Shown piece by piece: positions 15,325 to 37,267 of a stretch of DNA of 39,797 nt; positions within the stretch are counted from its first letter, which is position 1; each line of letters begins with the position of its first letter. The notes under the pieces were generated by a model, which was not told where the DNA came from, did not search any database, and saw only the letters and a list, made by a program, of their open reading frames with translations. The stretch spans positions 1 through 39,797 of the forward strand of contig DXBJ01000055.1 in assembly GCA_019116585.1 (NCBI GenBank), written 5' to 3'. This stretch comes from Candidatus Faecalibacterium gallistercoris. Its GTDB lineage: Bacteria > Bacillota > Clostridia > Oscillospirales > Ruminococcaceae. The translations under genes were made by a program, and so were the position numbers.

Positions 15325-15378
15325 ACCTTTCCCTGCCAGAGATCTTTCACATTGTTTCTGGACCGAAAGGAGCCTTCT

Positions 15379-15828: not shown

Positions 15829-15832
15829 GGCC

Positions 15833-19842: not shown

Positions 19843-19858
19843 CGGCCTGTACGCCCGC

Positions 19859-19963
19859 AGGGTGTATCTGAAAAGCCCGACAGGCTGGACCCTTCGCCCC
19901 GCGGACCGCATTTTGGAGCCGCGGGCGCAAAGGACGGCGTGGGGGCGTTTTCGGATGCACCCT
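19859..19963 (+). repeat. MITE-like terminal-inverted-repeat element, copy 3 (divergent), inside the fab operon
   Basis: It begins AGGGTGTATCTGAAAA and ends GCGTGGGGGCGTTTTCGGATGCACCCT-like, matching the ends of the 7591-7754 element (GCGTGGGGGAATTTTCAGATACACCCT-like) with scattered substitutions. The interior is shorter and more GC-rich, with a CCGCGG...CCGCGG-type stem. It lies in the fabH-fabK gap, with the fabK ribosome binding site about 12 nt after it. No promoter is evident within it. Confidence 0.7.
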
Positions 19964-19983
19964 GCTTTAAGAAGGAGTTTACT

Positions 19984-20910: not shown

Positions 20911-21836
20911 AAACAGCATTTTTGTACGCGGGTCAGGGCAGCCAGCACCCCGGCATGGGCGCCGACCTGTACGAGGCATACCCTGAATTCCGGGCGGTGC
21001 TGGACAGCGCCGAGGTGGGCTTTGACCTCAAGACCGTCTCCTTCACCGACCCCGACGGGGTTCTGAACCAGACCGAGTACACCCAGCCCTGCATGGTGGC
21101 CTTTGCCGCCGGCATGACCGCCATCCTGGCGGGCAAGGGCATCCGCCCGGACTACGCCGCCGGGCTGAGCCTGGGCGAGTATTCGGCCCTGTGCGCCGCC
21201 GGCGTCTTTACCGCCAGGCAGGCGGTGGAGCTGGCCGCGTTCCGGGGCAGGGCCATGGCGGCGGCCGCCGCCGGCGTGCCCTGCGGCATGACCGCCGTGC
21301 TGGGCCTGGACCGGGACAAGCTGCGCGCCGCCTGCGAGGCAGCCGCCCCGGAAGGAGTGGTGGAGATCGCCAACTACAACTGCCCCGGCCAGCTGGTCAT
21401 CGGCGGGCAGAAAGCGGCGGTGGACGCCGCCGCCGCCAAGGCCAAGGAGCTGGGCGCCAAGCGCTGCCTGCCCCTGAAGGTCAGCGGGCCGTTCCACACC
21501 TCGCTGCTGGCCCCCGCCGGCGACGCCCTGCGGGAGCGCTTCAAGACCGAGACGTTCGGCGCGATGCAGTTCCCCGTCCTGTTCAACTGCCTGGGCCGGG
21601 AGATGGGGGAGGGGGACACCATCCCCGCCCTGCTGGAGCGGCAGGTCCAGTCCTCGGTCTACATGGAGGACACCATCCGCCGGATGGCCGAGCTGGGTGT
21701 GGAGCGGATCGTGGAGATCGGCCCCGGCAAGGTCCTCAGCGGCTTTGTCAAAAAGACCGTCCCCTCCATCCGCACCTGCGCGGTGGAGACCTGCGCCGAC
21801 ATCGACGCCCTCTGCGAGGCGCTGAAAGGAGAGTAA
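20907..21836 (+). CDS. fabD: Malonyl-CoA:ACP transacylase
   Basis: A 309-residue enzyme that moves malonyl from CoA to ACP. The nucleophile motif is GLSLGEYSAL (Ser88), the catalytic His is in SGPFHTSLL, and the N-terminal FLYAGQGSQHPGMG is typical. The length is normal. It overlaps fabK by 4 nt (ATGA) and precedes fabG by 1 nt, in keeping with a tightly packed operon. Confidence 0.97.
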   Translation: MKTAFLYAGQGSQHPGMGADLYEAYPEFRAVLDSAEVGFDLKTVSFTDPDGVLNQTEYTQPCMVAFAAGMTAILAGKGIRPDYAAGLSLGEYSALCAAGVFTARQAVELAAFRGRAMAAAAAGVPCGMTAVLGLDRDKLRAACEAAAPEGVVEIANYNCPGQLVIGGQKAAVDAAAAKAKELGAKRCLPLKVSGPFHTSLLAPAGDALRERFKTETFGAMQFPVLFNCLGREMGEGDTIPALLERQVQSSVYMEDTIRRMAELGVERIVEIGPGKVLSGFVKKTVPSIRTCAVETCADIDALCEALKGE

Positions 21837-21837
21837 C

Positions 21838-22584
21838 ATGGGCAGCATGAGTGGAAAGAACGCCGTCGTCACCGGCGGCTCCCGCGGCATCGGCCGGGCG
21901 ATCTGCCTGGAGCTGGCGCGCCGCGGCGCAAACGTGGTATTCTCCTATGCGGGCAACACCGCCGCTGCGGACAAGACCCTGGAGGAGCTGAAGGCCCTGG
22001 GCGTGGAGGCCCGGGCCATCCAGGGCAATGTGGCCGACCCCGCCGCCGCCAAGGCCCTGATCGACACGGCCGTCAAGGAGCTGGGGGGCATCCACATCCT
22101 GGTCAACAACGCGGGCATCACCCGCGACGGCCTGGCCATGGCCATGAAAGAGGACGACTTCGACGCCGTCATCGAAACCAACCTCAAGGGCGCGTTCCTG
22201 TGCATGAAGGCGGCCATCCGCCCCATGATGAAGGCGCGCTACGGCCGCATCGTCAACATGAGCTCGGTGGTGGCCCTGCGGGGCAACCCCGGCCAGGTCA
22301 ACTACTGCGCCAGCAAGGCCGGCCTGATCGGCATGACCAAGTCCCTGGCCAAGGAGATGGGCGCCCGGGGCATCACCGTCAACGCGGTGGCCCCCGGCTA
22401 CATCTCCACCGATATGACCGCGGCCCTGCCCGACGCCGCCCGGCAGGCCATGCTGTCCACCATCCCGGTGGGCCGCGCCGGCAGCCCCGAGGACGTGGCC
22501 GCCGCGGTGGCATTCCTGGCCTCGGAGGAGGCCGGCTACATCACCGGGCAGGTGCTCAGCGTGGACGGCGGCATGGGAATGTGA
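21838..22584 (+). CDS. fabG: 3-oxoacyl-ACP reductase
   Basis: A 248-residue short-chain dehydrogenase that reduces beta-ketoacyl-ACP with NADPH. It has the cofactor motif TGGSRGIGRA (12-21), NNAG at 90-93, the catalytic Ser in MSSVV and the YCASK motif (Tyr156, Lys160). ATG 21838 has a GGAGAG site; an ATG 9 nt later is an alternative. It sits 1 nt after fabD and 15 nt before fabF. Confidence 0.97.
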   Translation: MGSMSGKNAVVTGGSRGIGRAICLELARRGANVVFSYAGNTAAADKTLEELKALGVEARAIQGNVADPAAAKALIDTAVKELGGIHILVNNAGITRDGLAMAMKEDDFDAVIETNLKGAFLCMKAAIRPMMKARYGRIVNMSSVVALRGNPGQVNYCASKAGLIGMTKSLAKEMGARGITVNAVAPGYISTDMTAALPDAARQAMLSTIPVGRAGSPEDVAAAVAFLASEEAGYITGQVLSVDGGMGM

Positions 22585-22599
22585 GGAGGAACGCATAAG

Positions 22600-23841
22600 A
22601 TGGAAAAACGCAGAGTTGTTATCACCGGCATGGGCACCGTCAACCCTCTGGGCCACAACATCGCCGAGAGCTGGCAGGCCGTCCGTGACGGGGTGTGCGG
22701 CATCGCGCCCATCACCCAGTACGATTCGTCCGCACAGAAGGTCCACCTGGCCGCCGAGGTCAAGGACTGGGACCCCACCGCTGTCATCGACAAGAGGGAA
22801 GTGCGGCACATGGCCCGCTACAGCCAGTTTGCCATGGCTTCGGCCAAAGAGGCCGTGGCGGACAGCGGCCTGGACCTGGAGGCCGTCGATCACGAGCGCT
22901 GCGGCGTCATCGTCTCCAGCGGCATCGGCGGCATCTCCACCACCGAGAGCGAGCAGACCCGCTGCCTGCAGAAAGGCTTCGACAAGGCTTCGCCCTTCTA
23001 CATCCCCTCCAGCATCGCCAACATGGCCGCCGGCCAGATCGCCATCGCCTTTGGCTTCAAGGGGATGTGCACCTGCCCGGTGACCGCCTGCGCCGGCGGC
23101 TCCAACGCGGTGGGCGACGCGTTCCGCCACATCCGGGACGGCTACGCCGAGGTGATGCTGTGCGGCGGCGCCGAGGCCTGCGTGACCCCGCTGTCCATCG
23201 GCGGCTTCACCTCCATGCGGGCCCTGCACGTCGGGGACGACCCCGCCCGCGCCTCCATCCCCTTTGACGCCGAGCGCGACGGCTTTGTGATGGGCGAGGG
23301 CGCCGGCATCCTGCTGCTGGAAGAGTACGAGCACGCCAAGGCCCGCGGCGCCAAGATCTACGCCGAGGTGGTGGGCTACGGCGCCACCTGCGACGCCTAC
23401 CACATCACCGCCCCGGCCCCCGGCGGCGAGGGCGGCGCCCGCGCCATGCAGCAGGCCCTGGACGACGCCGGCGTCACCGCCGGTCAGGTGGACTACATCA
23501 ACGCCCACGGTACCTCCACCCCGCTGAACGATTCCGGCGAGACCGCCGCCATCAAGACGGTGTTCGGCCAGCACGCCTACGAGCTGGCCGTCAGCTCCAC
23601 CAAGTCCATGACCGGGCATATGCTGGGCGCCGCCGGCGGCGTGGAGGCCATCTTCACCGCCCTGGCCCTGAAGGACGGCTATATCCCGGCCACCATCAAC
23701 TACAAGGTGCCCGACCCGGCCTGCGATCTGGACTACGTGCCCAATACCGGCCGCAGCGCCGAGCTGCGCTATGCGCTGTCCAACTCGCTGGGCTTCGGCG
23801 GCCACAACGCCTGCGTCCTGTTCAAAAAGTGGGAGGGCTGA
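22600..23841 (+). CDS. fabF: Beta-ketoacyl-ACP synthase II
   Basis: A 413-residue elongating condensing enzyme. The active-site Cys164 lies in TACAGGSNAVGD; the two catalytic histidines are in NAHGTSTPLND and TGHMLGAAGGVE. The length is normal. A strong GAGGAGGAA site precedes the ATG. As the only elongating ketosynthase visible here it would perform all elongation cycles; control of unsaturation by FabF and FabZ is possible because no fabB, fabA or fabM is present in the operon (inference). Confidence 0.97.
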   Translation: MEKRRVVITGMGTVNPLGHNIAESWQAVRDGVCGIAPITQYDSSAQKVHLAAEVKDWDPTAVIDKREVRHMARYSQFAMASAKEAVADSGLDLEAVDHERCGVIVSSGIGGISTTESEQTRCLQKGFDKASPFYIPSSIANMAAGQIAIAFGFKGMCTCPVTACAGGSNAVGDAFRHIRDGYAEVMLCGGAEACVTPLSIGGFTSMRALHVGDDPARASIPFDAERDGFVMGEGAGILLLEEYEHAKARGAKIYAEVVGYGATCDAYHITAPAPGGEGGARAMQQALDDAGVTAGQVDYINAHGTSTPLNDSGETAAIKTVFGQHAYELAVSSTKSMTGHMLGAAGGVEAIFTALALKDGYIPATINYKVPDPACDLDYVPNTGRSAELRYALSNSLGFGGHNACVLFKKWEG

Positions 23842-23844
23842 GAG

Positions 23845-24300
23845 ATGATGAAGTATAATTCCGACGAGATCGCCAAGATCCTGCCCCACCGCTATCCCTT
23901 TGCCCTGGTGGACCGCATCGTGGACGGGGAAGAAGGCAAGTGGGCCAAGGGCATCAAGTGCGTCACCGTCAACGAGCCCTTTTTCCAGGGGCACTTCCCC
24001 CAGTACCACGTGATGCCGGGCGTCCTCATCGTCGAGGCCATGGCCCAGGTGGGCGGGGTGGCCCTGCTGTCCATGCCGGAGAACAAGGGCAAGCTGGCCC
24101 TGTTCGGCGGCATCAAGAACGCCCGCTTCCGCCGCCAGGTGACCCCCGGCGACGTGTTGGAGATCGAGTGCACCCTGACCAAACAGAAGGGCCCCGTGGG
24201 CATCGGGGAGGCCAAGGCGACCGTGGACGGCCAGGTGGCCGCCACCGCCGAGCTGACCTTTGCCCTGGTCAACGCCCCTGAGGCATCTGCGTGTACCTGA
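23845..24300 (+). CDS. fabZ: 3-hydroxyacyl-ACP dehydratase
   Basis: A 151-residue hot-dog-fold enzyme that dehydrates 3-hydroxyacyl-ACP to trans-2-enoyl-ACP. The N-terminal [14 protein letters not shown] is typical, and the catalytic pair is His50 in GHFPQY and Glu64 in [10 protein letters not shown]. Two successive ATG codons (23845 and 23848) are possible starts. It begins 3 nt after fabF and completes the elongation cycle enzymes of the operon. Confidence 0.96.
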
Positions 24301-24341
24301 CGGGAACGGCGGCGCACCGCAGGCCCTGTGGGAGGAACACT

Positions 24342-24812
24342 ATGCTGGAACAGATCGTAAAAACGGCGTACAAGGAGTTCACCCTCCGCTTTTACCACGA
24401 GCTGTTCGCGCGGTTCCAGGACCAGGAGACCGGGCTGACGGCGGCGGAGATCTTTGCCGCCGAAGCCATCCGGGCTCTGGGCAGCCCCACGGTCAACGAG
24501 TTTGCCGACTTTATGCACGTCTCGACCCCCAACGCAGCCTACAAGATCAACAGCCTGGTGCGGAAAGGATACGTCGAAAAGACCCGTTCGGCCCAGGACA
24601 AGCGGGAGTACCTGCTCCACGTCACCCAGAAATACGAGACCTACTGCGGCGCGGGGGACCGCGTCCAGAACGCCGTGGCCCGCATCCGGGAGCGCTTTTC
24701 CCCGGAGGAGTGCGCCAAATTCGGCGAGATGCTCTCGGTCATCAGCCAGGAGCTGCTGCCGCTGGACGGCGAACAGCCCGCCGGCACAGACCGCCCGGAG
24801 CAGGCAAAATAA
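24342..24812 (+). CDS. MarR-family transcriptional regulator at the end of the fab operon (FabT-like)
   Basis: A 156-residue winged-helix protein. The recognition region reads GSPTVNEFADFMHVSTPNAAYK-type, followed by INSLVRKGYVEKTRSAQDKRE, where the wing carries the RSxxDxR signature of MarR proteins. ATG 24342 follows GGGAGGAAC. In FabK-containing streptococci the fab genes are repressed by the MarR protein FabT with acyl-ACP as co-repressor. This protein has the same family and context but sits last in the operon rather than first. The palindrome at 14974-15007 is a candidate binding site. Autoregulation through operon feedback is inference. Confidence 0.85.
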   Translation: MLEQIVKTAYKEFTLRFYHELFARFQDQETGLTAAEIFAAEAIRALGSPTVNEFADFMHVSTPNAAYKINSLVRKGYVEKTRSAQDKREYLLHVTQKYETYCGAGDRVQNAVARIRERFSPEECAKFGEMLSVISQELLPLDGEQPAGTDRPEQAK

Positions 24813-27262: not shown

Positions 27263-29071
27263 TCATTTTTTGGGCTGCGCCGCTTTCTGCGGGTTGAGAT
27301 ACCGCCACAGGGTGGTCCGGCTGATGCCCAGGCGCTTGGCGGCGGCGGTCTGGTTGCCGCCCACGGCGTCCAGGGTCTGGTGGATGGCCTGCAGGATGAT
27401 CTCGTCCAGGGTGCCGGAGGCCGCCCCCGGCGCCGCCGGGGCGGCGGCCGGGTCGGAATGGTAGGTGCGGCGCTCCCGGGCCAGCACCTCGGCCACCACG
27501 CTGCCCCGGATGTAGGCCGAGTCGGTCAGGGTGACCAGCTCCTGCAGCACCTGCTTGAACTGGGTGTAGTTGTTGGGCCACTCGTATTGCAGCAGCTGCT
27601 CCGAGGCCCGGGGGTCGAAGCCGATGATCTGCTTGCCCAGCTCGGCGTTCAGGCTGCTGAGGTAGAGGCTGGCCAGGCTGGGCAGTTCGTCCCGGCGGCT
27701 GCGCAGGGTGGGCAGCTGCAGCGTCAGGCAGCCCAGCTGGCTGCGCAGCACCTGCACCGGCTCGGGCAGGGGCCGGCCCTCGATGCAGGCCGCCGAGAAC
27801 AGCAGCCGCACCCGGCGGGGCAGGTTGGTCTCGGTGGCCACGGCCAGCAGCTCCTGCTGGTACTGGTGGGCCAGAAGCTCCAAATGCTGGAAATAGACGG
27901 TGCAGCTGCCCTCGTTCAGGGGCGAGGCGTAGTGGTTGAACAGGTACTCCCAGTTTTTGTCGGTCATCAGGCTGCAGTCCACCACCGCAAGGGGGCTGTT
28001 GACCCGGGGGCTGCGCAGGTACAGGGCGCGGGCGATCTGCTCCTTGCCGGTGCCCACCTCCCCCAGGATCATCACCGGCTGGCGGGTGGGCGCAATGGCG
28101 TTGACCTGCTCTTCCAGCATCCCCATGGCCCCGCTGATGCTGTAAAAACTGTGCATGAACTGCTGCATGGCCTCCGCCTCGTCAAAAAAGCGCAGCCCGT
28201 TTTTGGACGAGCGCAGGGGGATCTGGGACAGCTGGCAGTGGAAGGTGTAATACGAGTCCCACCCGGCCCGCAGCCGGTGGGCGGTCACCCGGGTGAACTC
28301 GCCCCCCTCGCTGTGGAAAAACCGCAGCGGCGACGCCGGGGGGATGTCGGGGATCCTGGAGCGCAGCAGCTCCAGCAGCCGGGGGTCCGGCTTTTCTTTG
28401 GCGGCATAGGCCAGCTGGCCGTCCTTGTCCAGGACGATGGTGTTGCCGCTGCGGGTGCGGGCCACCCCCTCCAGCAGCTGGTTCTGCCGGCGCATCTGGC
28501 GGAAGCGGTCGCTGATCTGGACCGCCTGGGCAAAAGCGTCGTGGAGGCTTTCGACCCCGGAGGTGATGAGGAAGGCGTCGAAGCCTTTCTGCCGGGCCAG
28601 GGTGTGGGTGACCATGTCGCTGACCACCATCTTGTAGCCCCCTTCCCGCAGCCGGTCCAGGGCGCGGTTGGTCTCGTCCATGCTGTGGATGGTGATGATG
28701 TCCATATCCAGCCGCAGCAGGTCGCACAGGGTGTGGGCCGGCTCGGTGATGCTGGGGAACCCCACGATGGCGTACAGGTTGGAATAATTCTCGGCCATTT
28801 TGATGGCCCGCAATACGTCGTAGACCGACAGCTGGATGGACACCACCGGCAGGTCGGTCACCTCCCGGATGCGGTCGGCGGTGCCCCCGCGTGAGATGAT
28901 GACGTCGTAGTTTTCCAGCTGGGCCGAGCGGACGATGGCTGCGCCGGCCTCCAGGTCGCCGGTGTAAGCGTCCAGCTGGATGTTCGGAAATTCTTCCGCG
29001 ACCCGCTCCATGGCGGTCTGCATCCCGTCGTAAGGGGCGATGCCCAGGATATGTGTGACCCGACCTTCCAT
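27263..29071 (-). CDS. PrpR_N-type transcriptional regulator with degenerate AAA+ domain
   Basis: A 602-residue regulator divergent from the acid-sugar cluster. Residues 1 to about 170 form a propionate-regulator N-terminal (PrpR_N) ligand-binding domain (SRGGTADRIRE, VGFPSITE). A PAS-like region (about 190-290) follows. The AAA+ region (about 315-540) keeps a Walker A (GEVGTGKE, 337-344) and the LPTLRSRRDELP segment, but the sigma-54 contact motif GAFTGA is missing and the Walker B Asp-Glu is replaced (VYFQHL, about 392-397). The C-terminus is a Fis-type HTH_8 (NQTAAAKRLGISRTTLWRYL). It probably acts on sigma-70 promoters as a ligand-responsive activator or repressor. The likely site is the TGT-N11-ACA element at 29161 and 35406. 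Confidence 0.9.
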   Translation of the reverse strand: MEGRVTHILGIAPYDGMQTAMERVAEEFPNIQLDAYTGDLEAGAAIVRSAQLENYDVIISRGGTADRIREVTDLPVVSIQLSVYDVLRAIKMAENYSNLYAIVGFPSITEPAHTLCDLLRLDMDIITIHSMDETNRALDRLREGGYKMVVSDMVTHTLARQKGFDAFLITSGVESLHDAFAQAVQISDRFRQMRRQNQLLEGVARTRSGNTIVLDKDGQLAYAAKEKPDPRLLELLRSRIPDIPPASPLRFFHSEGGEFTRVTAHRLRAGWDSYYTFHCQLSQIPLRSSKNGLRFFDEAEAMQQFMHSFYSISGAMGMLEEQVNAIAPTRQPVMILGEVGTGKEQIARALYLRSPRVNSPLAVVDCSLMTDKNWEYLFNHYASPLNEGSCTVYFQHLELLAHQYQQELLAVATETNLPRRVRLLFSAACIEGRPLPEPVQVLRSQLGCLTLQLPTLRSRRDELPSLASLYLSSLNAELGKQIIGFDPRASEQLLQYEWPNNYTQFKQVLQELVTLTDSAYIRGSVVAEVLARERRTYHSDPAAAPAAPGAASGTLDEIILQAIHQTLDAVGGNQTAAAKRLGISRTTLWRYLNPQKAAQPKK

Positions 29072-29109
29072 TTGTGAAACTCCCTTCTCGGTACAAAAAC
29101 CTCTCTATG

Positions 29110-29124
29110 ATGCTATTGTAGCAT
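29110..29124 (-). promoter_or_regulatory. Palindrome covering the -10 of the PrpR-like gene
   Basis: On the minus strand ATGC-TACAAT-AGCAT is a perfect 15-bp palindrome with TACAAT (29120-29115) as -10; the -35 is weak. The same layout recurs at 35367-35381. Confidence 0.5.
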
Positions 29125-29160
29125 TTTGGGACGAAAAGGGAAGGGCTTCCGGGCAGAAAA

Positions 29161-29177
29161 TGTTTCAAAATAGCACA
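29161..29177. promoter_or_regulatory. TGT-N11-ACA element, site 1 (candidate binding site of the PrpR-like regulator)
   Basis: TGTTTCAAAATAGCACAAA (29161-29179) shares 15 of 19 bases with 35406-35424. Its centre is 102 nt before the -10 at 29271. A looser copy, CATTTCAAAATGTTACG, lies at 29213-29229. Confidence 0.55.
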
Positions 29178-29247
29178 AATCGCGTGGCTTTGCTGCGGAA
29201 AAATCCGGCGTTCATTTCAAAATGTTACGTTTTTCATCTGCGGGCCG

Positions 29248-29276
29248 TTGCTCCCGGGGCGCAAACGTGGTAAGCT
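29248..29276 (+). promoter_or_regulatory. Promoter of the acid-sugar operon
   Basis: TTGCTC (29248-29253), a 17-nt spacer and TAAGCT (29271-29276), 55 nt before the kinase start. Both boxes are off-consensus, as expected for an activated promoter. No sigma-54 -24/-12 pair was found. Confidence 0.5.
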
Positions 29277-29331
29277 AAAGGCACAAAAGGGGAGGCCGGC
29301 AGGGCCGCCCCCCAAACCAGGAGGTGGATCC

Positions 29332-30609
29332 ATGATCACGTTACTGATCGTTGCGGATGATTTCACCGGCGCGCTGGACACGGGCGTCCAGCTGGCGGGC
29401 TGCGGCGCCCCCACCCGCGTGGTGACCGACCCGGAGTTTTCCCCCGCCAATGCGGCGGGGGCCGAGGTGCTCGTGATCGACGCCGAGACCCGGCACCTGC
29501 CCCCCAGCCAGGCGGGGGCCATTGTGGAAGGCATCGTCCGCCGCGCGGTGGAACAGAAGGTCTCTTACATCTATAAAAAGACCGACTCGGCCCTGCGGGG
29601 CAACGTGGGGGCCGAGCTGGGGGCGCTGCTTGCCGCCAGCGGGGAAAAGGCGCTGCCTTTCCTGCCGGCGTATCCCCAGATCGATCGCTGCACCCGGGGC
29701 GGCGTCCATTACATCGAGGGGCGCCCGGTGGCCGAGAGCGTTTTTGGCATCGACCCCTTCGAGCCGGTGCGGCACTCCGACATCGCCGGCCTGATCGGGG
29801 CCCAGAGCGGGGTCCCGGTCCACAGCCTGCCGGCGGACGCCCCCGCCCCCGAGGGGCAGGGCATCTACGTCTACGACGCATCCTCCCTGGCGGACCTGGA
29901 ACGGGCCGGCCAGACCCTGGCTGCGGCGGGGCGGCTGCACATCTCGGCGGGGTGCGCCGGGTTCGGGGCGGTGCTGCCCCGGCTGCTGGGCCTCGGCCGG
30001 GCACAGCAGCCCCCCAAACCCCGGCTGGACCCCCGGCTGCTGGTGGTCTGCGGCAGCGTCAACCCCATCACGGTGGCCCAGCTGGACGCTGCCGAAGAGG
30101 CCGGCTTTGCCCGGCTGCGGCTGACGCCCCGCCAGAAGCTGGAACCCGGCTACTGGAACACCCCGGAGGGCGAAGCGGACCGCGCCCGCATCGAGGCGCT
30201 GCTGCAGGCAAACCCCCGCGTCCTCCTGGACAGCAACGACGCCGGGGGCAACGGCCCCACCGCGGACTACGCCGCGGGCCTGGGCTGCGGGCTGGAGGAG
30301 ATGCGGGTACGGATCGCCTCCAGCATCGGGGACCTGGTGGCAGGCCTGCTCCACAGCCCGGCGGTGGGCACCCTCCTGATGACCGGCGGGGACACCCTGC
30401 TGCAGGTGATGCGCTGCGCCGGCGTCCGGGAGCTGGAGCCCCTCTGCGAGCTGGAGAAAGGGGTCGTCCTGGCCCGGTGCACCTACCGCGGCTGCACCCG
30501 GCACGTCATCACCAAATCGGGCGGGTTCGGGCAGGCTGCCCTGCTGACCGATCTCGCCGCCCGCCTGGAGGCCCAGGCGGAGGGAAACAGGAACCGCAGC
30601 GTACGCTGA
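29332..30609 (+). CDS. Four-carbon acid sugar kinase (DUF1537 / OtnK-DtnK family)
   Basis: A 425-residue cytosolic kinase. The N-terminal acid-sugar-binding domain begins LLIVADDFTGALDTGVQLA and includes KKTDSALRGNVGAEL; the C-terminal nucleotide-binding domain has VVCGSVNPITVAQ, a glycine motif around LLMTGGDT and the terminal ITKSGGFGQ. Characterised members phosphorylate D-threonate, D-erythronate or L-threonate at C4. A PdxA2-type dehydrogenase gene follows three genes later, the usual partner, which would oxidise and decarboxylate the 4-phosphate to dihydroxyacetone phosphate. ATG 29332 has a CAGGAGGTGG site. It is the first gene of the cluster, 260 nt from the divergent regulator. The exact substrate is not determined. 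Confidence 0.9.
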   Translation: MITLLIVADDFTGALDTGVQLAGCGAPTRVVTDPEFSPANAAGAEVLVIDAETRHLPPSQAGAIVEGIVRRAVEQKVSYIYKKTDSALRGNVGAELGALLAASGEKALPFLPAYPQIDRCTRGGVHYIEGRPVAESVFGIDPFEPVRHSDIAGLIGAQSGVPVHSLPADAPAPEGQGIYVYDASSLADLERAGQTLAAAGRLHISAGCAGFGAVLPRLLGLGRAQQPPKPRLDPRLLVVCGSVNPITVAQLDAAEEAGFARLRLTPRQKLEPGYWNTPEGEADRARIEALLQANPRVLLDSNDAGGNGPTADYAAGLGCGLEEMRVRIASSIGDLVAGLLHSPAVGTLLMTGGDTLLQVMRCAGVRELEPLCELEKGVVLARCTYRGCTRHVITKSGGFGQAALLTDLAARLEAQAEGNRNRSVR

Positions 30610-30633
30610 CACCATACTGACAGAGAAAGGACG

Positions 30634-31803
30634 ATGGAAATGACTTATCCCAAACTGCCCGGCCTGACCTGGGACGGCACCCTGTATCAGAACGACGAGA
30701 TGGGCACCGTGGAGGCCCTGCTGCCCACCGGCGGCTGGCCCACGGCCCACGCCCCCGCCATGGTGGAGCTGCCCGACGGCGACCTGCTGTGCTGCTGGTT
30801 TGCCGGCACCTACGAAGGCAGCGCCGACATCCACATCATCTGCTCCCTGCTGCCCAAGGACGCCCCCGCCTGGCTGCCCCCGGTGGACATCTCGGGCGAC
30901 CCCACCCGCAGCGAGCAGAACCCGTCCCTCTTCTACGGCCCCGACGGGGCGGTCTGGGCCATGTACACCGCCCAGCTGGACCGGGTGCCCGGCAAGGACA
31001 ACATGCAGTTCACCTCGGTGGTGCGCTGCCAGAAGAGCTTTGACGGCGGCCGCACCTGGGGCCCCTACGAGACGGTGTTCCCCGAGGAGGGCACCTTCTG
31101 CCGCCAGCCCATCCAGGTGCTGTCCAACGGCCGGTGGATCTTCTCCAACTGGATCTGCACCGACTCGGCCGACGGCCTGTCGGGGGACCCCACCGCCTTC
31201 CGCCTGTCGGACGACGAGGGCAAGACCTGGCGGATGGTCATGATGCCCAAGTCCAACGGCCATGTCCACGCCAACGTGGTGGAGCTGGAGCCGGGGCACC
31301 TGGTGGCCTTTATGCGCAACCGCGAGGCCTACCGCATCCACCGCAGCGAATCCTTTGACTGGGGCGAGACCTGGACCGAGCCCAAGCCCACCCCGCTGCC
31401 CAACAACAACTCCAGCATCAGCGCCGCCAAGCTGGCCAGCGGCCGCATCGCCGTCGCCTACAACCCCACCTGCACCCCGGACCCCCACCCCGGCAAGGCG
31501 GCCTGGCCCGGCCTGCGCTGTCCCGTGGCGGTGGCCCTGTCCGAGGACGGGGGCCTGACCTTCCCCATCATCCGCTGGATGGAGCGGGGCGAGGGCTACA
31601 TGGGCGACGAGAACCGCACCAACAACAAGCAGTACGAGTACCCCTATCTCATGCAGGGGAAGGACGGCGCCCTGCACCTGGCCTACGCCGCCCGCACCCG
31701 GCAGGGGATCAAATACGTCCGCTTCCGCGAGGAGGACGTCCTGGGCGCCCGGCGGGAGCGGGTGGGCCTGTACAACCCCACCGCCGCCCAGGGGACCAAA
31801 TAA
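30634..31803 (+). CDS. Cytosolic BNR / sialidase-like beta-propeller protein
   Basis: A 389-residue protein of the BNR_2 sialidase-like group. Four Asp-box motifs are visible: SFDGGRTW (135-142), SDDEGKTW (192-199), SFDWGETW (240-247) and SEDGGLTF (303-310), consistent with a six-bladed propeller. There is no signal peptide or membrane segment, so it acts in the cytosol, unlike secreted sialidases. Adjacent genes encode a sugar-acid kinase, a dehydrogenase and an aldolase, so it may process a small intracellular sugar derivative; the reaction is unknown. Start ATG 30634 (or 30640) follows AAAGGAC, 24 nt after the kinase stop. Confidence 0.82.
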   Translation: MEMTYPKLPGLTWDGTLYQNDEMGTVEALLPTGGWPTAHAPAMVELPDGDLLCCWFAGTYEGSADIHIICSLLPKDAPAWLPPVDISGDPTRSEQNPSLFYGPDGAVWAMYTAQLDRVPGKDNMQFTSVVRCQKSFDGGRTWGPYETVFPEEGTFCRQPIQVLSNGRWIFSNWICTDSADGLSGDPTAFRLSDDEGKTWRMVMMPKSNGHVHANVVELEPGHLVAFMRNREAYRIHRSESFDWGETWTEPKPTPLPNNNSSISAAKLASGRIAVAYNPTCTPDPHPGKAAWPGLRCPVAVALSEDGGLTFPIIRWMERGEGYMGDENRTNNKQYEYPYLMQGKDGALHLAYAARTRQGIKYVRFREEDVLGARRERVGLYNPTAAQGTK

Positions 31804-31849
31804 AGCGCGCTTTCCAGAAAGACTTACCATTGCATAGGAGGAGATTTTT

Positions 31850-33016
31850 ATGCTGACGCAATACAACCTGAAGATGCCCCACGCCGTCTATGGCGGCGAA
31901 AACGCGATGGACAACATCACCGCCATCATTAAGGCGCGGGGCGCAAAGAAGGTGGCCCTGTTCACCGACAAGGGCATCGAGGCCGCCGGCCTGTTCGCCC
32001 TGCCCGAGGCGGCGGTCAAGGCCGCCGGCGCGCAGTATTACGTCCTGGACGACCTGCCCGCCGAGCCCAGCTACATGGCGGTGCAGAAGCTGGTGGACGA
32101 GTTCAAGCACAGCGGCGCCGACCTGATCGTGGCCTGCGGCGGCGGCAGCGTCATGGACGCCGCCAAGCTGGCCAGCGTGCTGGTCACCGACAGCTACGGC
32201 GTCAAGGAGCTGCTGGACGACCCCGGCATGGCCCAGAAGTGCGTGCCCATCGTCCTGGTCCCCACCACCGCCGGCACCGGCGCCGAGGTCACCCCCAACG
32301 CCATCGTCGCCGTCCCCGAAAAGGAGCTGAAGGTGGGCATCGTCAACGAGCACATGATCGCCGACTACGTCATCCTGGACGCCCGGATGATCAAGAACCT
32401 GCCCCGCAAGATCGCGGCGGCCACCGGCGTCGACGCCCTGGCCCACTGCATCGAGTGCTTCACCAGCAACAAGGCCAACCCCTTCAGCGACCTGTACGCC
32501 CTGGAGGGCCTGGACCTGATCCTGAACAACATCGAAAAGGCCTGCGACGACCCCGAGGCCATGGCCGAAAAGAACCGGATGCAGATCGCGGCCTACTACG
32601 GCGGGCTGGCCATCACCGCATCGGGCACCACCGCCGTCCATGCCCTGAGCTACCCGCTGGGCGGCAAATACCACATCGCTCACGGCGTGTCCAACGCCAT
32701 CCTGCTGGCCCCGGTGATGCGCTTCAACAGCGAGCACCCCGCCGTCAAGGAGCGGCTGGCCGCCGCCTACGACCGCTGCTGCCACGAGGAAAAGACCTGC
32801 GCCACCGTGGAGGAGAAGAGCGCCTGGATGATCGCCCGGCTGGAGCAGATCGTCCGGCACCTGGACATCCCCACCAGCCTGAAGGAGTTCGGCGTGCCCG
32901 AAGAGGACCTGGAGGGCCTGGTGGAGGCCGGCATGCAGGTGCAGCGCCTGCTGGTGAACAATATGCGCCCCGTCACCCCCGACGACGCCCGCAAACTGTA
33001 CCAGGAAGTCATGTGA
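31850..33016 (+). CDS. Iron-containing (group III) alcohol dehydrogenase
   Basis: A 388-residue NAD(P)-dependent dehydrogenase. The nucleotide-binding GGGSVMDAAK (97-106) and VPTTAGTGAEVT segments are present. Metal ligands fit D195 and H199 (DALAHCIECF), H264 (TTAVHALSYPLGG) and H278 (YHIAHGVSNA). The family interconverts alcohols and carbonyls, including hydroxy acids and lactaldehyde or butanol-type substrates. Here it probably oxidises or reduces an intermediate of the acid-sugar pathway (inference). An AGGAGGAG site precedes the ATG. Three hairpins follow in the 153-nt gap before the aldolase gene. Confidence 0.9.
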   Translation: MLTQYNLKMPHAVYGGENAMDNITAIIKARGAKKVALFTDKGIEAAGLFALPEAAVKAAGAQYYVLDDLPAEPSYMAVQKLVDEFKHSGADLIVACGGGSVMDAAKLASVLVTDSYGVKELLDDPGMAQKCVPIVLVPTTAGTGAEVTPNAIVAVPEKELKVGIVNEHMIADYVILDARMIKNLPRKIAAATGVDALAHCIECFTSNKANPFSDLYALEGLDLILNNIEKACDDPEAMAEKNRMQIAAYYGGLAITASGTTAVHALSYPLGGKYHIAHGVSNAILLAPVMRFNSEHPAVKERLAAAYDRCCHEEKTCATVEEKSAWMIARLEQIVRHLDIPTSLKEFGVPEEDLEGLVEAGMQVQRLLVNNMRPVTPDDARKLYQEVM

Positions 33017-33134
33017 CCGCCAGGAAAAGGCCCCCATCCCCCCGCGCAGCTGCGGGGCAGGGGAGCCTTGGCGGCAATTCAGGCCCCGCCGGCCTGAACG
33101 ACCGGGATGTTTTGGCGTAACGCCGCGGCGTTAC
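33017..33134 (+). repeat. Three consecutive intercistronic hairpins
   Basis: CCGCCA/TGGCGG arms (33017-33022 with 33069-33074) enclosing a GC-rich inner stem; TTCAGGCC/GGCCTGAA (33078-33085 with 33091-33098); GTAACGCC/GGCGTTAC (33117-33124 with 33127-33134). None is followed by a T run, so they look like mRNA processing or stability elements rather than terminators. Confidence 0.65.
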
Positions 33135-33169
33135 CCGCAAATAAACAGCAAAGAAAAGGAGAACCTACC

Positions 33170-34078
33170 ATGAAGGCAGTCGAAATCAAAGGCATCATCC
33201 CCCCGATCATCACCCCGATGAACGACGACGAGTCCATCAACGTGGCCGAGCTGCGGGCCCAGGTCAACCGCCAGATCGAGGGCGGCGTCCACGCCATTTT
33301 CTGCTTTGGCACCAACGGTGAGGGCTACATCCTGAACGGCAAGGAGAAGGAGCTGGTCCTGCGCACCGTCATCGAAGAGTGCAACGGCCGCGTCCCCGTC
33401 TATGCCGGCACCGGCTGCATCTCCACCAAAGAGACCATCGAGCAGAGCAAGATGGCCCAGGCCCTGGGCGCGGACGTGCTGTCCATCATCACCCCCAGCT
33501 TTGCCGCCGCCAGCCAGAACGAGCTGTACGAGCACTACAAGGCCGTGGCCGAGGCGGTGGATATGCCCATCGTCCTGTACAACATCCCCGCCCGCACCGG
33601 CAACGCCCTGGCCCCCGCCACCGTGGCCCGGCTGGCCCAGATCGACAACATCGTGGGCGCCAAGGACTCTTCGGGCAACTTCACCAACATCCTGGCCTAC
33701 ATCGACGCGGGCAAGAGCAAGAAGAACGGCACCTTCTCCACCCTGTCCGGCAACGACCAGCTCATCATCTGGAACCTGCTGGCCGGCGGCACCGGCGGCA
33801 TCGCCGGCTGCGCCAACGTCTATCCCCATGTGATGGCCTCCATCTACAACCTGTTCATGGAGGGCAAGATCGAGGAGGCCAAAGCGGCCAACGCCAGCAT
33901 CGCTTCCTTCCGCGCCTGCTTCAAGTACGGCAACCCCAACACCATCGTCAAGACGGCCGTGGCCATGCTGGGCTACAACGTGGGCAAGTGCCGCGCCCCC
34001 TTCAACCAGGTGCCGGAGGAAGGCATCAAGGCCCTGGAGAAGGTGCTGAAGGAGAACGCTGACAAGGGGATGTGCTGA
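33170..34078 (+). CDS. DapA-family (dihydrodipicolinate synthase / N-acetylneuraminate lyase superfamily) aldolase
   Basis: A 302-residue TIM-barrel class I aldolase. The Schiff-base lysine is K165 in IVGAKDSSGN, and Tyr137 lies in VLYNIPARTG; the substrate loop is GTNGEGY instead of the GTTGE of true DapA. Together with its cluster this points to cleavage or dehydration of a 2-keto sugar acid rather than lysine biosynthesis. Reactions of close family members include 4-hydroxy-2-oxoglutarate, 2-keto-3-deoxy sugar acid and sialic acid cleavage. ATG 33170 has AAAAGGAGA upstream. It lies between the alcohol dehydrogenase and PdxA2-like genes on the same strand. Confidence 0.88.
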   Translation: MKAVEIKGIIPPIITPMNDDESINVAELRAQVNRQIEGGVHAIFCFGTNGEGYILNGKEKELVLRTVIEECNGRVPVYAGTGCISTKETIEQSKMAQALGADVLSIITPSFAAASQNELYEHYKAVAEAVDMPIVLYNIPARTGNALAPATVARLAQIDNIVGAKDSSGNFTNILAYIDAGKSKKNGTFSTLSGNDQLIIWNLLAGGTGGIAGCANVYPHVMASIYNLFMEGKIEEAKAANASIASFRACFKYGNPNTIVKTAVAMLGYNVGKCRAPFNQVPEEGIKALEKVLKENADKGMC

Positions 34079-34161
34079 GCCCCTCTCGGCCGGCCCTCCG
34101 CACACCGGGAGGGAGAGGGCCCAAAGCAGACGTTTCTCAGAACAAGAGGAGGGTTTTATCT

Positions 34162-35235
34162 ATGAATCGACCCATTGTTGGCATCACCATGGGCGACCCG
34201 GCCGGCAACGGCCCCGAGATCACCGTCAAGGCGCTGGCCCACGGGGATATTTACGACCGCTGCCGCCCCATCGTGGTGGGCGACGCCAAAATGCTGGAGC
34301 AGGCCAAAGGCTTTGTGGGCCGGCCGGACATCCAGATCCACCGCTGTGAAAAGGTGTCCGACGCCCTGTTCACCCCCGGCACCATCGACGTGCTGCACAT
34401 GGAGCTGATCCCCGATGCAGCCGCCTTTGAGCTGGGCAAGGTGAGCGTGGCGGGAGGCAACGCGGCGTTCCAGTGCGTCAAAAAGGTGATCGAGCTGGCC
34501 ATGGCCGGCGAGGTGGACGCCACCTGCACCAACGCCCTGAACAAAGAGGCCATGAACAAGGCCCTGGAGGCGGACGGCGGCGCCCACTCGGACGGGTACA
34601 CCCATTTCGACGGCCACACCGAGATCTACGCCACCTACACCCACACCAAAAAGTACACCATGATGCTGGCCCACCACGACCTGCGGGTGGTCCATGTGTC
34701 CACCCACTGCTCCCTGCGGGAGGCCTGCGACCGGGTCAAAAAGGCCCGGGTGCTGGAGGTGATCGAGATCGCCCACCAGGCCTGCAAGGACATGGGCATC
34801 GCCCAGCCCCGGGTGGCGGTGGCCGGCCTGAACCCCCACTGCGGCGAGAACGGCCTGTTCGGCACCGAGGAGATCCAGGAGATCAAGCCCGCCATCGAGG
34901 CGGCCCGGGCCGAGGGGATCGACGCCATCGGTCCCATCCCCCCGGACAGCGTGTTCAGCGAGGCGCTGGGCGGCTGGTACGACATCGTAGTCTGCATGTA
35001 CCACGACCAGGGGCACATCCCCCTCAAGACGGTGGGCTTTGTCTACGACCGCGAAAAGCAGGCGTGGAAGGCCGTGGAGGGCGTCAACGTCACCCTGGGC
35101 CTGCCCATCATCCGCACCAGTGTGGATCACGGCACCGGCTTTGCCCTGGCCGGCAAGGGCACCAGCAACGAGCTGAGCCTGGTGAACGCCATCGACTACG
35201 CAATCCGGATGGCCAACGGCCGCAAAAAAGCATAA
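34162..35235 (+). CDS. PdxA2-like 4-phospho-acid-sugar dehydrogenase
   Basis: A 357-residue PdxA-family NAD-dependent dehydrogenase. The N-terminus GITMGDPAGNGPEI is diagnostic; metal-binding histidines fit H152 (FDGHTEIYA), H182 (VSTHCSL) and H281 (YHDQGHIPLK). PdxA proper acts in vitamin B6 synthesis, but PdxA2 paralogues next to DUF1537 kinases oxidatively decarboxylate threonate or erythronate 4-phosphate to dihydroxyacetone phosphate and CO2. The kinase at 29332 in the same unit makes the PdxA2 role more likely. An AAGAGGAGG site precedes ATG 34162. The unit ends at a terminator at 35262. Confidence 0.9.
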   Translation: MNRPIVGITMGDPAGNGPEITVKALAHGDIYDRCRPIVVGDAKMLEQAKGFVGRPDIQIHRCEKVSDALFTPGTIDVLHMELIPDAAAFELGKVSVAGGNAAFQCVKKVIELAMAGEVDATCTNALNKEAMNKALEADGGAHSDGYTHFDGHTEIYATYTHTKKYTMMLAHHDLRVVHVSTHCSLREACDRVKKARVLEVIEIAHQACKDMGIAQPRVAVAGLNPHCGENGLFGTEEIQEIKPAIEAARAEGIDAIGPIPPDSVFSEALGGWYDIVVCMYHDQGHIPLKTVGFVYDREKQAWKAVEGVNVTLGLPIIRTSVDHGTGFALAGKGTSNELSLVNAIDYAIRMANGRKKA

Positions 35236-35261
35236 ATTTCCGGTCTGCCATCGGGGCCGGT

Positions 35262-35291
35262 GGGCGGAGCTTTCATGCTCCGCCCTTTTTT
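35262..35291 (+). terminator. Intrinsic terminator ending the acid-sugar operon
   Basis: GGGCGGAGC (35262-35270) pairs with GCTCCGCCC (35277-35285), followed by a six-T run. Confidence 0.88.
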
Positions 35292-35346
35292 GCTGCCTAT
35301 TGCAGAACGGAACGAATGCAGGGCCGGGCCGGGGGAGGAGGCTCGT

Positions 35347-35381
35347 TTGCCGCAACGAACCAAAACGTTCTACAATAGAAC
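35347..35381 (+). promoter_or_regulatory. Candidate distal promoter with palindromic -10
   Basis: TTGCCG (35347-35352), 18-nt spacer, TACAAT (35371-35376). The -10 is the centre of the perfect palindrome GTTC-TACAAT-AGAAC (35367-35381), arranged exactly like the one at the regulator promoter. Confidence 0.45.
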
Positions 35382-35405
35382 AAAAAAGCGGGCAAAAGGC
35401 ACAAA

Positions 35406-35422
35406 TGTTTCAAAAAGTGACA
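35406..35422. promoter_or_regulatory. TGT-N11-ACA element, site 2
   Basis: TGTTTCAAAAAGTGACAAA matches site 1 (29161) at 15 of 19 positions. Its centre is 104 nt before the TATAAT at 35518, nearly the same spacing as site 1. It is part of the 373-nt gene-free stretch 35236-35608, which otherwise holds the terminator and the two promoters. Confidence 0.55.
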
Positions 35423-35494
35423 AAAGGCGGGACGTAAAATTTGAACAAAATGGGATTCTGTTCCCGGCTGAAACGCATTTTGCGCCGCCGTTGG

Positions 35495-35523
35495 TTGAGC
35501 GGCCCGGCCGATTCGGATATAAT
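35495..35523 (+). promoter_or_regulatory. Promoter of the permease-VOC unit
   Basis: TTGAGC (35495-35500), a 17-nt spacer and a perfect TATAAT (35518-35523), 85 nt before the permease ATG. Confidence 0.7.
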
Positions 35524-35608
35524 TTAGACACAAAGATCAAACCGAACTGTGCAGGATGCCGAAACCTGCATGTGCGGAAGAGGGTTTGAAAAAAGGAGGT
35601 CCATCTAC

Positions 35609-36883
35609 ATGACAACACCCATGATCATTGCCCTGGCTGTGACTGTCTTCATGATCGTCCTGATCATGATGGACAAGCTGCCCTTTGGCGCGCCGCCGCT
35701 GCTGGCCCTGCTGCTGCTGGTCGTCTTTGGCGTGACCGACATCAAGACGGCGTTCGGCGGCTTCTCCAACTCCACCATCGTGATGCTCGCATCCTTCATG
35801 GCGATCATCGCAGCCCTGCAAAAAACCAGCTTTATCGTCAAATTCAAGGACGCCATGTTCAAAATGGCAAGCAAAGGCGGTTTCCTGGCCTATGTGCTGC
35901 TGATCCTCATCGTCATGCTGGGGTGCAGCCTGTTCGGCACCGGCTCCACCGCTTACTACGTCCTGGTCATCGGCCTGCTGTCCAACCTGCCGTACAGCAA
36001 GAGCCTGCCCCCCTCCAAGGTGCTGATGCCTGCGGGCTTTGCGGCCAACCACCCGCTGCTGCCCTTCAACACCGCGCTGCAGTATGGCATCGTCATCGCG
36101 GTGCTGCAGAGCGCCGGCGCATCCTCGGAGGTCAACCTGGTCAAGTTCTCCTTCGTCAACCTGGCTTTGTCCCTGGGCTTCCTGGCATGGTGCCTGCTGG
36201 CCTACAAGCTGATGCCCGACCACCCCATCGCCGCCGCCCAGGAGACGGCTGCGGACAACCATGAAGTCACCCTGACCAAGCAGAAAGAGATCATCACCTA
36301 CATCTGCTTTGTGGTGGCCGTGATCGGCATGATCCTGCAGAGCAACATCGGCGACGCCGGCTACGCCATCACCGGCCTGGCGGTGGCCGCCCTGCTGATC
36401 TTCGGCATCATGGATTTCAACGAGATCCGCAACGCCATCAGCGCCCCCATCATCCTGATGTCTGCCGGCGTCATCGGCATCGCCGACGCTTTGGGCAGCA
36501 CCGGTCTGACCAACCTGGTGGGCGAGACGGTCGCCGGCATGCTGGGCGACAACGTCAACCCCTTCGTCCTGATCTTCGTGTTCTGCATCCTGACCAGTGT
36601 CCTGGCCACCCTGACCGGTTCCACCATCGGCACGGTCTACGTCTTTGCCCCCATGGCCATCGCCACCTGCATGAACCTGGGCCTTGACCCCACTGCGGCG
36701 GCCGCCGCCATCGTCATCTCGGGCTGGTGCGGACACTTCCTGCCCATCGACGGCATGCCCGCCATGATCATGGGCGCCGGCGACTACAAGATCGGCGAGT
36801 TCTGGAAGTTTACCATCCCGCAGTACTTCATCCGCCTGCTGGCCCTGACTGCCGGCGCGGTCCTGATCTTCCCCATGCGGTGA
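35609..36883 (+). CDS. SLC13/CitMHS-type (ion transporter superfamily) permease
   Basis: A 424-residue membrane protein with about 11 hydrophobic helices. The repeat GFSNSTIVMLASFMAI near residues 50-65 and FGTGSTAYYVLVIGLL resemble the helical-hairpin NST-type signatures of the divalent anion:sodium symporter (SLC13/DASS) and related CitMHS groups; a second ATLTGSTIGTVYVFAP region follows in the C-terminal half. Such carriers import carboxylates. Its location and shared upstream element suggest that it takes up the sugar acid degraded by the upstream operon (inference). ATG 35609 has AAAAAGGAGG; in-frame upstream codons lack a site. Confidence 0.85.
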   Translation: MTTPMIIALAVTVFMIVLIMMDKLPFGAPPLLALLLLVVFGVTDIKTAFGGFSNSTIVMLASFMAIIAALQKTSFIVKFKDAMFKMASKGGFLAYVLLILIVMLGCSLFGTGSTAYYVLVIGLLSNLPYSKSLPPSKVLMPAGFAANHPLLPFNTALQYGIVIAVLQSAGASSEVNLVKFSFVNLALSLGFLAWCLLAYKLMPDHPIAAAQETAADNHEVTLTKQKEIITYICFVVAVIGMILQSNIGDAGYAITGLAVAALLIFGIMDFNEIRNAISAPIILMSAGVIGIADALGSTGLTNLVGETVAGMLGDNVNPFVLIFVFCILTSVLATLTGSTIGTVYVFAPMAIATCMNLGLDPTAAAAAIVISGWCGHFLPIDGMPAMIMGAGDYKIGEFWKFTIPQYFIRLLALTAGAVLIFPMR

Positions 36884-36919
36884 CGAGCCGCCTGCGGGAA
36901 CCGAAAAAGGAGAAACGTT

Positions 36920-37267
36920 ATGGCCTGCAAATTTGAACTGGAACACATCGGCATCAACACCCCGAACGCAGAGGAGGCCGCGCGGCTGGCCCAGCTGCTG
37001 AGCATGATGTTCAACCTGGAGCCCCGCCACGGCCAGAAGTCCGAGTTCGGCGGCGCCTACTTTGAGTGCATGAAGGCGCCTTTCCTGGGCAGCAGCGGCC
37101 ACATCGCCATGCGGACCCCCGACCTGACCGCCGCCGTGGCCGAGCTGAAGGAGAAGGGATTCTCCTTCAACATGGACACCGCCGCCTACTTCGACGACGG
37201 CCGGCTGAAGAACGTCTACCTCGACGGGGAATACGGCGGCTTCGCCATCCACATCATGGAAAAATGA
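36920..37267 (+). CDS. Stand-alone VOC (glyoxalase-fold) domain protein
   Basis: A 115-residue single VOC domain. It begins FELEHIGINTPNAEEAARLA and ends GGFAIHIMEK. From memory this pattern resembles the C-terminal VOC domain attached to clostridial KDPG/KHG aldolases, but here it is encoded alone. His-9-type and Glu residues typical of the metal site (EHIG, GHIAM, terminal AIHIME) are visible. It lies 36 nt after the permease gene, co-oriented, with AAAAGGAG before the ATG. It may act on a keto-acid intermediate or assist the aldolase in trans; its function is unproven. Confidence 0.82.
   Translation: MACKFELEHIGINTPNAEEAARLAQLLSMMFNLEPRHGQKSEFGGAYFECMKAPFLGSSGHIAMRTPDLTAAVAELKEKGFSFNMDTAAYFDDGRLKNVYLDGEYGGFAIHIMEK

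What the first reader, a model, noticed from the sequence alone, without database searches (positions are those of the whole stretch)
27263..37267. Putative acid-sugar catabolic system with an unusual enzyme set under one degenerate PrpR-type regulator
A DUF1537 kinase and a PdxA2-like dehydrogenase (established threonate/erythronate to DHAP chemistry) are combined with a cytosolic BNR propeller, an iron alcohol dehydrogenase, a DapA-family aldolase, an SLC13-type permease and a lone VOC domain. The kinase/PdxA2 pair alone suffices for threonate; the extra enzymes imply a larger or modified substrate (for example a sialic-acid-like, aldonic or branched acid) whose fragments are a four-carbon acid and a keto acid. 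I know of no described pathway with this set.
Basis: partly seen in the sequence, partly recalled or inferred. Interest (0 to 1): 0.75.

Follow-up and report, generated by a model that had tools for sequence, protein, structure and literature searches.

The report
Gut pathway for a rare pectin sugar-acid
A conserved gene cassette in Faecalibacterium and other gut bacteria looks like a complete route for breaking down an acidic, sialic-acid-like sugar, most likely the rare seven-carbon sugar of plant pectin whose fate inside cells seems undescribed.

Summary
In detail: a PrpR-like regulator and a seven-gene operon (DUF1537 kinase, BNR_2 propeller, Fe-ADH, DapA-like aldolase, PdxA-like dehydrogenase, CitMHS/SLC13-type permease, VOC protein). 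It is a real unit: 69 of 80 loci found with the propeller carry all four other enzymes nearby. Best reading: catabolism of a seven-carbon 2-keto-3-deoxy sugar diacid. Aldolase gives pyruvate + a four-carbon aldehyde acid; Fe-ADH reduces it to a threonate-like acid; kinase + PdxA2 give DHAP + CO2. [quoted passage not shown] Support: the aldolase keeps DapA's carboxylate-binding Arg (70 of 70) but lost DapA's Tyr107; some cassettes carry YhcH, the sialate ring-opening family, where others carry VOC; the propeller has a sialidase fold; its nearest non-cassette relatives sit beside or are fused to DapA-like proteins in 5 of 9 genomes, and all nine carry apiosidase. Against: the same four-enzyme core also occurs without the propeller, with other front-end enzymes; kinase and PdxA2 miss the D-threonate equivalog cut-offs. 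Nothing was assayed; Dha is inferred. Five paper searches listed no Dha catabolism.

The parts
27263..29071 (-). PrpR_N-type regulator, 602 aa, incomplete AAA+ domain, Fis-type HTH
   Evidence: Pfam; TIGR02329 133.2 of 499.2; no rpoN found
29072..29331 (.). Divergent intergenic region, presumed control region
   Evidence: position only; not tested
29332..30609 (+). DUF1537 four-carbon acid kinase (SBD_N + NBD_C)
   Evidence: Pfam; nearest NCBIfam model D-threonate kinase, 176.8 of 450
30634..31803 (+). BNR_2 sialidase-fold protein, 389 aa, no signal peptide seen
31850..33016 (+). Iron-type alcohol dehydrogenase, proposed aldehyde-acid reductase
   Evidence: Pfam; no NCBIfam equivalog cut-off met
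33170..34078 (+). DapA-derived aldolase keeping Lys161, Tyr133, Arg138; Asn45, Phe107
   Evidence: Pfam; residues; separate lysine DapA
34162..35235 (+). PdxA2-like 4-phosphate dehydrogenase
   Evidence: Pfam; TIGR00557 pdxA 329.8 of 290.35, D-threonate 4-phosphate dehydrogenase 333.2 of 583
35609..36883 (+). CitMHS/SLC13-type permease
   Evidence: PF03600 91.5 of 31.9; DASS model 60.1 of 198.6
36920..37267 (+). VOC-fold protein with four invariant possible metal ligands

Best explanation
The cassette imports and degrades a cyclic seven-carbon 2-keto-3-deoxy sugar diacid, most likely Dha (3-deoxy-D-lyxo-hept-2-ulosaric acid) from rhamnogalacturonan II. Proposed steps, all inferred from family, residues and context, none assayed: (1) import by the SLC13-type permease (TRAP carriers elsewhere); (2) the sialidase-fold BNR protein hydrolyses a ketosidic form or otherwise readies it; (3) the VOC protein (YhcH in other genomes) opens the ring; (4) the DapA-derived aldolase cleaves the open form to pyruvate + D-threuronate (2,3-dihydroxy-4-oxobutanoate), an analogue of aspartate semialdehyde, DapA's own substrate; (5) Fe-ADH reduces the aldehyde to D-threonate with NADH; (6) the DUF1537 kinase makes D-threonate 4-phosphate; (7) PdxA2 oxidises and decarboxylates it to DHAP + CO2, regenerating NADH. 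Net: Dha + ATP -> pyruvate + DHAP + CO2 + ADP, redox-neutral. Worked out by hand, lyxo stereochemistry yields D-threonate, the DtnK substrate. My odds: the aldolase-reductase-kinase-PdxA2 sequence on some C7 2-keto-3-deoxy acid about 0.6; Dha in particular about 0.4; BNR as a ketosidase about 0.45.
Against: No enzyme was assayed. Kinase and PdxA2 lie far below the D-threonate equivalog cut-offs (176.8 of 450; 333.2 of 583) while PdxA2 passes the general pdxA cut-off, so another C4 acid is possible. Four of the six core genomes lack the BNR protein and carry a 2-hydroxyacid dehydrogenase, PTE lactonase-like, amidohydrolase or NadB-like gene instead, which Dha does not obviously need. Esterases beside some cassettes are unexplained. 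SLC13 and TRAP importers suit a free acid, which makes a cytosolic ketosidase puzzling. The known Dha hydrolase is GH143 (PMC6811678), not GH33. VOC/YhcH exclusivity needs only two switches on the BNR tree, and 19 of 80 loci have neither. Apiosidase enrichment is partly a plant-fibre signal: GH10 is also enriched, 5 of 9 against 86 of 382; 7 of the 23 weaker BNR_2 genomes have apiosidase; of the six core genomes only G249 has it, the window's genome not. The Asn45/Phe107 pair also occurs in an aldolase of a different cluster, L154.
Confidence: 0.42

Rival explanations
1. Same chemistry, other substrate: a stereoisomer of Dha, another C7 2-keto-3-deoxy diacid, or 3-deoxyheptulosonate (then Fe-ADH would act on a tetrose).
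For: Kinase and PdxA2 miss the D-threonate cut-offs; kinases vary widely between loci while BNR, Fe-ADH and VOC stay similar; the core occurs with several front ends.
Against: Retained Arg138 in 70 of 70 aldolases speaks for a carboxylated aldehyde; Dha is the only natural compound of this kind that I know (recalled).
Confidence: 0.25
2. The aldolase releases hydroxypyruvate from a 2-keto sugar acid that is not 3-deoxy; the 2-hydroxyacid dehydrogenase of BNR-less cores would be its reductase.
For: 2-hydroxyacid dehydrogenases of the glyoxylate/hydroxypyruvate reductase superfamily in L149, L150, L152.
Against: No such gene in the window operon; DapA-family aldolases use pyruvate as donor as far as I recall; YhcH points to a sialate-like 2-keto-3-deoxy acid.
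Confidence: 0.12
3. Kinase and PdxA2 simply degrade threonate or erythronate, and BNR, Fe-ADH, aldolase and VOC serve other ends.
For: DUF1537 + PdxA2 suffice for D-threonate (PMC10971088 and PMC10079672, passages).
Against: The other enzymes travel with the pair across distant lineages and in changed gene orders.
Confidence: 0.1
4. Catabolism of a known sialate (Neu5Ac, KDN) or of Kdo.
For: Sialidase fold, YhcH family, DapA-family aldolase.
Against: Aldolase below both N-acetylneuraminate lyase cut-offs; none of the window's proteins matches a ManNAc kinase or epimerase; a C4-acid kinase and PdxA2 would have no role.
Confidence: 0.05

Closest known systems
D-threonate pathway (DtnK, a DUF1537 kinase, + PdxA2)
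   Same: Kinase and decarboxylating 4-phosphate dehydrogenase; product DHAP
   Different: Here apparently fed by an aldolase and a reductase; both proteins score far below the D-threonate equivalog cut-offs
N-acetylneuraminate catabolism (NanA, YhcH/NanQ, sialidase)
   Same: Sialidase fold, ring-opening family in relatives, DapA-family aldolase giving pyruvate
   Different: Aldolase keeps DapA's carboxylate-binding Arg; proposed second product is a four-carbon aldehyde acid, not ManNAc
Lysine DapA (dihydrodipicolinate synthase)
   Same: Above the TIGR00674 cut-off (222.2 of 206.15); C7 diacid made of pyruvate + C4 semialdehyde acid
   Different: Thr45 and Tyr107 replaced; the genome has its own dapA elsewhere
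Bacteroides thetaiotaomicron RG-II degradation (GH143 Dha hydrolase)
   Same: Releases the proposed substrate (PMC6811678, passage)
   Different: Depolymerisation; I found no description of what happens to Dha inside a cell

Membership tests
D-threonate kinase (NF047819) | curated score cut-off 450 | tested here: not met
   176.8 bits; relatives 243.3 (L060), 173.3 (L077), 212.2 (L072), 205.3 (L149), 282.2 (L152)
D-threonate 4-phosphate dehydrogenase (NF002891) | curated score cut-off 583 | tested here: not met
   333.2 bits; the general pdxA model TIGR00557 is met, 329.8 of 290.35
DapA, lysine biosynthesis | TIGR00674 cut-off | tested here: met
   222.2 of 206.15
DapA, lysine biosynthesis | Thr45/Tyr107 and lysine-gene context | tested here: not met
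   Asn and Phe in 70 of 70 rows; the gene with both residues lies on another contig beside asd- and dapB-like ORFs. Residue roles are recalled
N-acetylneuraminate lyase (NF003164, TIGR00683) | curated cut-offs 281 and 382 | tested here: not met
   153.1 and 132.9 bits
GH33 sialidase | six-bladed sialidase fold | tested here: met
GH33 sialidase | Arg triad, Asp acid, Tyr/Glu nucleophile pair | tested here: inconclusive
   Weak, partial HMMER alignments: Arg228 and Arg295 pair with Arg; His39 stands at the first Arg, Glu61 at the Asp, His212 at the Glu; Tyr336 by position only. Sialidase motif recalled
GH143 (known Dha hydrolase) | sequence homology to the B. thetaiotaomicron enzyme | not testable with these tools
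   No GH143 sequence at hand; family named in PMC6811678
YhcH/YjgK/YiaL family (in relatives, not in the window) | PF04074 and TIGR00022 cut-offs | tested here: met
   PF04074 107.9, 99.7, 103.2 of 26.5 for L050, L063, L072; TIGR00022 60.2-71.7 of 45.5 for four proteins; the other loci by tblastn only
N-acetylneuraminate anomerase NanQ (NF040884; in relatives) | curated cut-off 160 | tested here: not met
   56.6-73.8 bits for four proteins
PrpR propionate regulator (TIGR02329) | curated cut-off 499.2; complete sigma-54 AAA+ domain | tested here: not met
   133.2 bits; AAA+ matched in part; no rpoN found
DASS transporter (TIGR00785) | curated cut-off 198.6 | tested here: not met
   60.1 bits; PF03600 CitMHS met, 91.5 of 31.9

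The most novel reading that the evidence does not exclude
This is a dedicated intracellular pathway for Dha, a sugar reported in plants only from rhamnogalacturonan II, scattered among gut fermenters including Faecalibacterium prausnitzii, which would live on Dha set free by others. The VOC protein would be a new class of ulosonate ring-opening enzyme and the BNR protein a new type of sialidase-fold enzyme.
Probability: 0.35. Interest if true: 0.85.

Novelty: new variant of a known kind. Interest (0 to 1): 0.7.

Why it matters
RG-II is a universal part of plant cell walls and its breakdown outside cells is known, but what becomes of Dha is not described in the papers I could search. A compact cassette in a major butyrate producer would make that question testable with a handful of enzymes, give a genomic marker for Dha cross-feeding, and correct names that now mislead (DapA, PdxA, sialidase, alcohol dehydrogenase, glyoxalase-like).

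Tried and rejected

Papers: PMC8141875, PMC12168206, PMC12282258, PMC6811678, PMC7939467, PMC10762512, PMC10971088, PMC10079672 and PMC12911395: passages only. The DUF1537 discovery paper (10.1073/pnas.1605546113) is not held; it and the 2017 RG-II paper are known to me second-hand and by recall. Searches with Dha terms: 20 of 132 listed; 1 of 1; 20 of 29; 15 of 3,581; 40 of 47; with gene-set terms: 7 (2 of 2), 14 (15 of 15), 72 (3 of 3). None of the listed titles or abstract starts concerns Dha catabolism or this gene set; the library lacks most subscription journals.
Full report
Window 27263-37267 encodes a PrpR-type regulator on the minus strand and, divergently, seven genes on the plus strand: DUF1537 kinase, BNR_2, Fe-ADH, DapA family, PdxA family, CitMHS-type permease and a small VOC-like protein. 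Every operon gene begins with ATG behind a purine-rich stretch, and gaps run from 24 to 373 bases. The regulator matches PrpR_N nearly in full but the AAA+ domain only in part, shows no GAFTGA motif by eye, and the genome (93% complete) yields no sigma-54 DNA-binding domain, so it is not a classical sigma-54 activator.

It is a functional unit. A scan of one genome per species with the BNR protein returned 80 loci (88 confirmed, best 80 kept), from Faecalibacterium (two contigs labelled F. prausnitzii), Lachnospiraceae, Oscillospiraceae, Streptococcus, Neobacillus, Succinivibrio and others. Within the fetched stretches (up to 10 kb either side) 69 of 80 carry kinase, Fe-ADH, aldolase and PdxA2; 2 carry three of them, 2 two, 3 one and 4 none. 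The four with none (L037, L038, L061, L062) lie at contig ends or on short contigs. A PrpR-like gene is seen in 61 of 80, the SLC13-type permease in 51 of 80, a fused TRAP permease in 14 of 80 and a DctM in 7 of 80. Gene order differs between lineages (for example L026, L035, L064, L072), which argues for selection on the set and not mere shared descent. Succinivibrio keeps the four core enzymes at 26-47% identity. In an even sample of 391 genomes of the class only two have a close BNR homologue, so the cassette is rare by species but widely scattered.

The aldolase gives the best chemical clue. It is DapA-like (above the TIGR00674 cut-off) but not the lysine enzyme: the likely lysine dapA lies on another contig beside asd- and dapB-like ORFs. 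In 70 of 70 cassette aldolases Lys161, Tyr133 and Arg138 are kept, while Thr45 is Asn and Tyr107 is Phe (E. coli numbering and roles recalled). Arg138 of DapA binds the carboxylate of aspartate semialdehyde (recalled), so the cassette enzyme should handle a four-carbon aldehyde that also bears a carboxylate. The Asn/Phe pair is not unique to the cassette: an aldolase in an unrelated PTS cluster (L154) has it too, but with Lys at 138.

The front end looks like sialic acid catabolism. In 18 of 80 loci a YhcH-like protein is present, in 43 the VOC protein, in none both, in 19 neither, several of these on cut contigs (family checked on four YhcH proteins). YhcH of E. coli has been shown to supply the open form of Neu5Ac to the DapA-family aldolase NanA; it helps with Neu5Ac and KDN but not with 2-keto-3-deoxyxylonate, which is largely open already (PMC8141875, passages). 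A mainly cyclic 2-keto-3-deoxy acid is therefore likely here too, and the VOC protein is a candidate replacement; it has four invariant possible metal ligands in 27 rows. The counts overstate independence: on the BNR tree of 78 rows only two VOC/YhcH switches are needed, one being L034, which has YhcH inside a VOC clade.

Relatives of the BNR protein point to RG-II. I fetched the surroundings of the nine best non-cassette BNR_2 matches, of 32 genomes with weaker matches in all. DapA-like proteins are adjacent in L115, L116 and L120 and fused to BNR_2 in L117 and L118 (Pfam for L115, L117, L118, L120; L116 by sequence only); none was seen in L113, L114, L119, L121. L115 adds a GH106 rhamnosidase and L118 a GH95 enzyme; a look-alike of the GH106 in L116 was not scanned. 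Their aldolases have Pro where the cassette has Arg138 (5 of 5). All nine genomes carry an apiosidase (PF13204) against 39 of the other 382 sampled genomes (p = 3e-9). As a control, GH10 xylanase is present in 5 of 9 against 86 of 382 (p = 0.03), so part of the signal is general plant-fibre use; of the 23 remaining genomes with weaker BNR_2 matches 7 have apiosidase over its cut-off (read). These tests ignore kinship between genomes. The window's own genome has no apiosidase, so it would be a cross-feeder.

The core can do without the propeller. In an aldolase-anchored search of 391 genomes six have matches of 360 bits or more (G249, G000, G324, G185, G161, G216). All six have kinase, Fe-ADH and PdxA2 beside it (for G249 the coordinates coincide with L031), but only G249 and G000 have the close BNR. 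The other four carry a 2-hydroxyacid dehydrogenase with an MFS carrier (L149), an EF_0837-type amidohydrolase plus 2-hydroxyacid dehydrogenase with TRAP genes (L150), a NadB-like flavoprotein with YhcH and TRAP genes (L151), or two PTE-family proteins, a 2-hydroxyacid dehydrogenase and an MFS carrier (L152). G257 (338 bits) has kinase, PdxA2 and aldolase next to an MGH1-like glycoside hydrolase, without Fe-ADH in its 7.4-kb contig; G307 (333 bits) has none of them. Matches of 275-321 bits were not followed for neighbours.

Putting it together: pyruvate (aldolase) plus a C4 acid (DtnK and PdxA2 make DHAP from D-threonate; PMC10971088 and PMC10079672, passages) requires a C7 substrate, and Fe-ADH supplies the missing reduction of aldehyde acid to hydroxy acid. 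The only natural C7 2-keto-3-deoxy diacid that I know is Dha. Worked out by hand, carbons 4-7 of D-lyxo Dha become D-threuronate and, after reduction, D-threonate. In plants Dha is reported only from RG-II (PMC12168206), and deoxy-lyxo-heptulosaric acid also from scales and thecae of green algae such as Tetraselmis (PMC10762512). No listed paper describes its catabolism, within a library that lacks most subscription journals.

What is shown: the gene set, its conservation, the BNR fold, residues, and variants. What is inferred: every catalytic step, the substrate, and the roles of VOC and BNR. Unexplained: esterases beside some cassettes (alpha/beta esterase in 9 of 80 loci; PHB-type esterases in L034, L056 and L069), a Na/Ca exchanger in 12 of 80 or a P-type cation ATPase (L021, L026 scanned) nearby, and the need for a cytosolic sialidase-fold enzyme with small-acid importers.

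Noticed in passing
L149, L150, L151, L152: Kinase/Fe-ADH/aldolase/PdxA2 cores without BNR but with 2-hydroxyacid dehydrogenase, amidohydrolase, NadB-like or PTE-family genes: apparent sister pathways for other precursors.
   Followed up: partly
L117:6099-8045 and L118:530-2464: DapA-family and BNR_2 domains fused in one protein, L118 next to a GH95 gene; candidate release-and-cleave enzymes for Kdo or Dha in RG-II degraders.
   Followed up: partly
L153:43-5164: MGH1-like glycoside hydrolase next to DUF1537 kinase, PdxA2 and DapA-like genes, suggesting a glycoside of an acid sugar as substrate.
   Followed up: no
L112:9018-10139: A second, diverged BNR copy in genome G249, away from the cassette and next to fatty-acid synthesis genes, with several cassette-invariant residues changed.
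   Followed up: no
L075:13448-14662; L081:7523-9325; L067:1289-2369: Cassettes with an interrupting ORF (transposase-like by eye in L075) or a BNR gene in two pieces.
   Followed up: no
L026:6909-9590, L021:5752-8646, L045:16291-17262: P-type cation ATPase or Na/Ca exchanger genes beside a number of cassettes; perhaps handling cation brought in with a chelating diacid.
   Followed up: no
window 15352-24812: Fatty-acid synthesis cluster (acc and fab genes) followed by a MarR-like gene, upstream of the regulator; identified by eye from translations.
   Followed up: no
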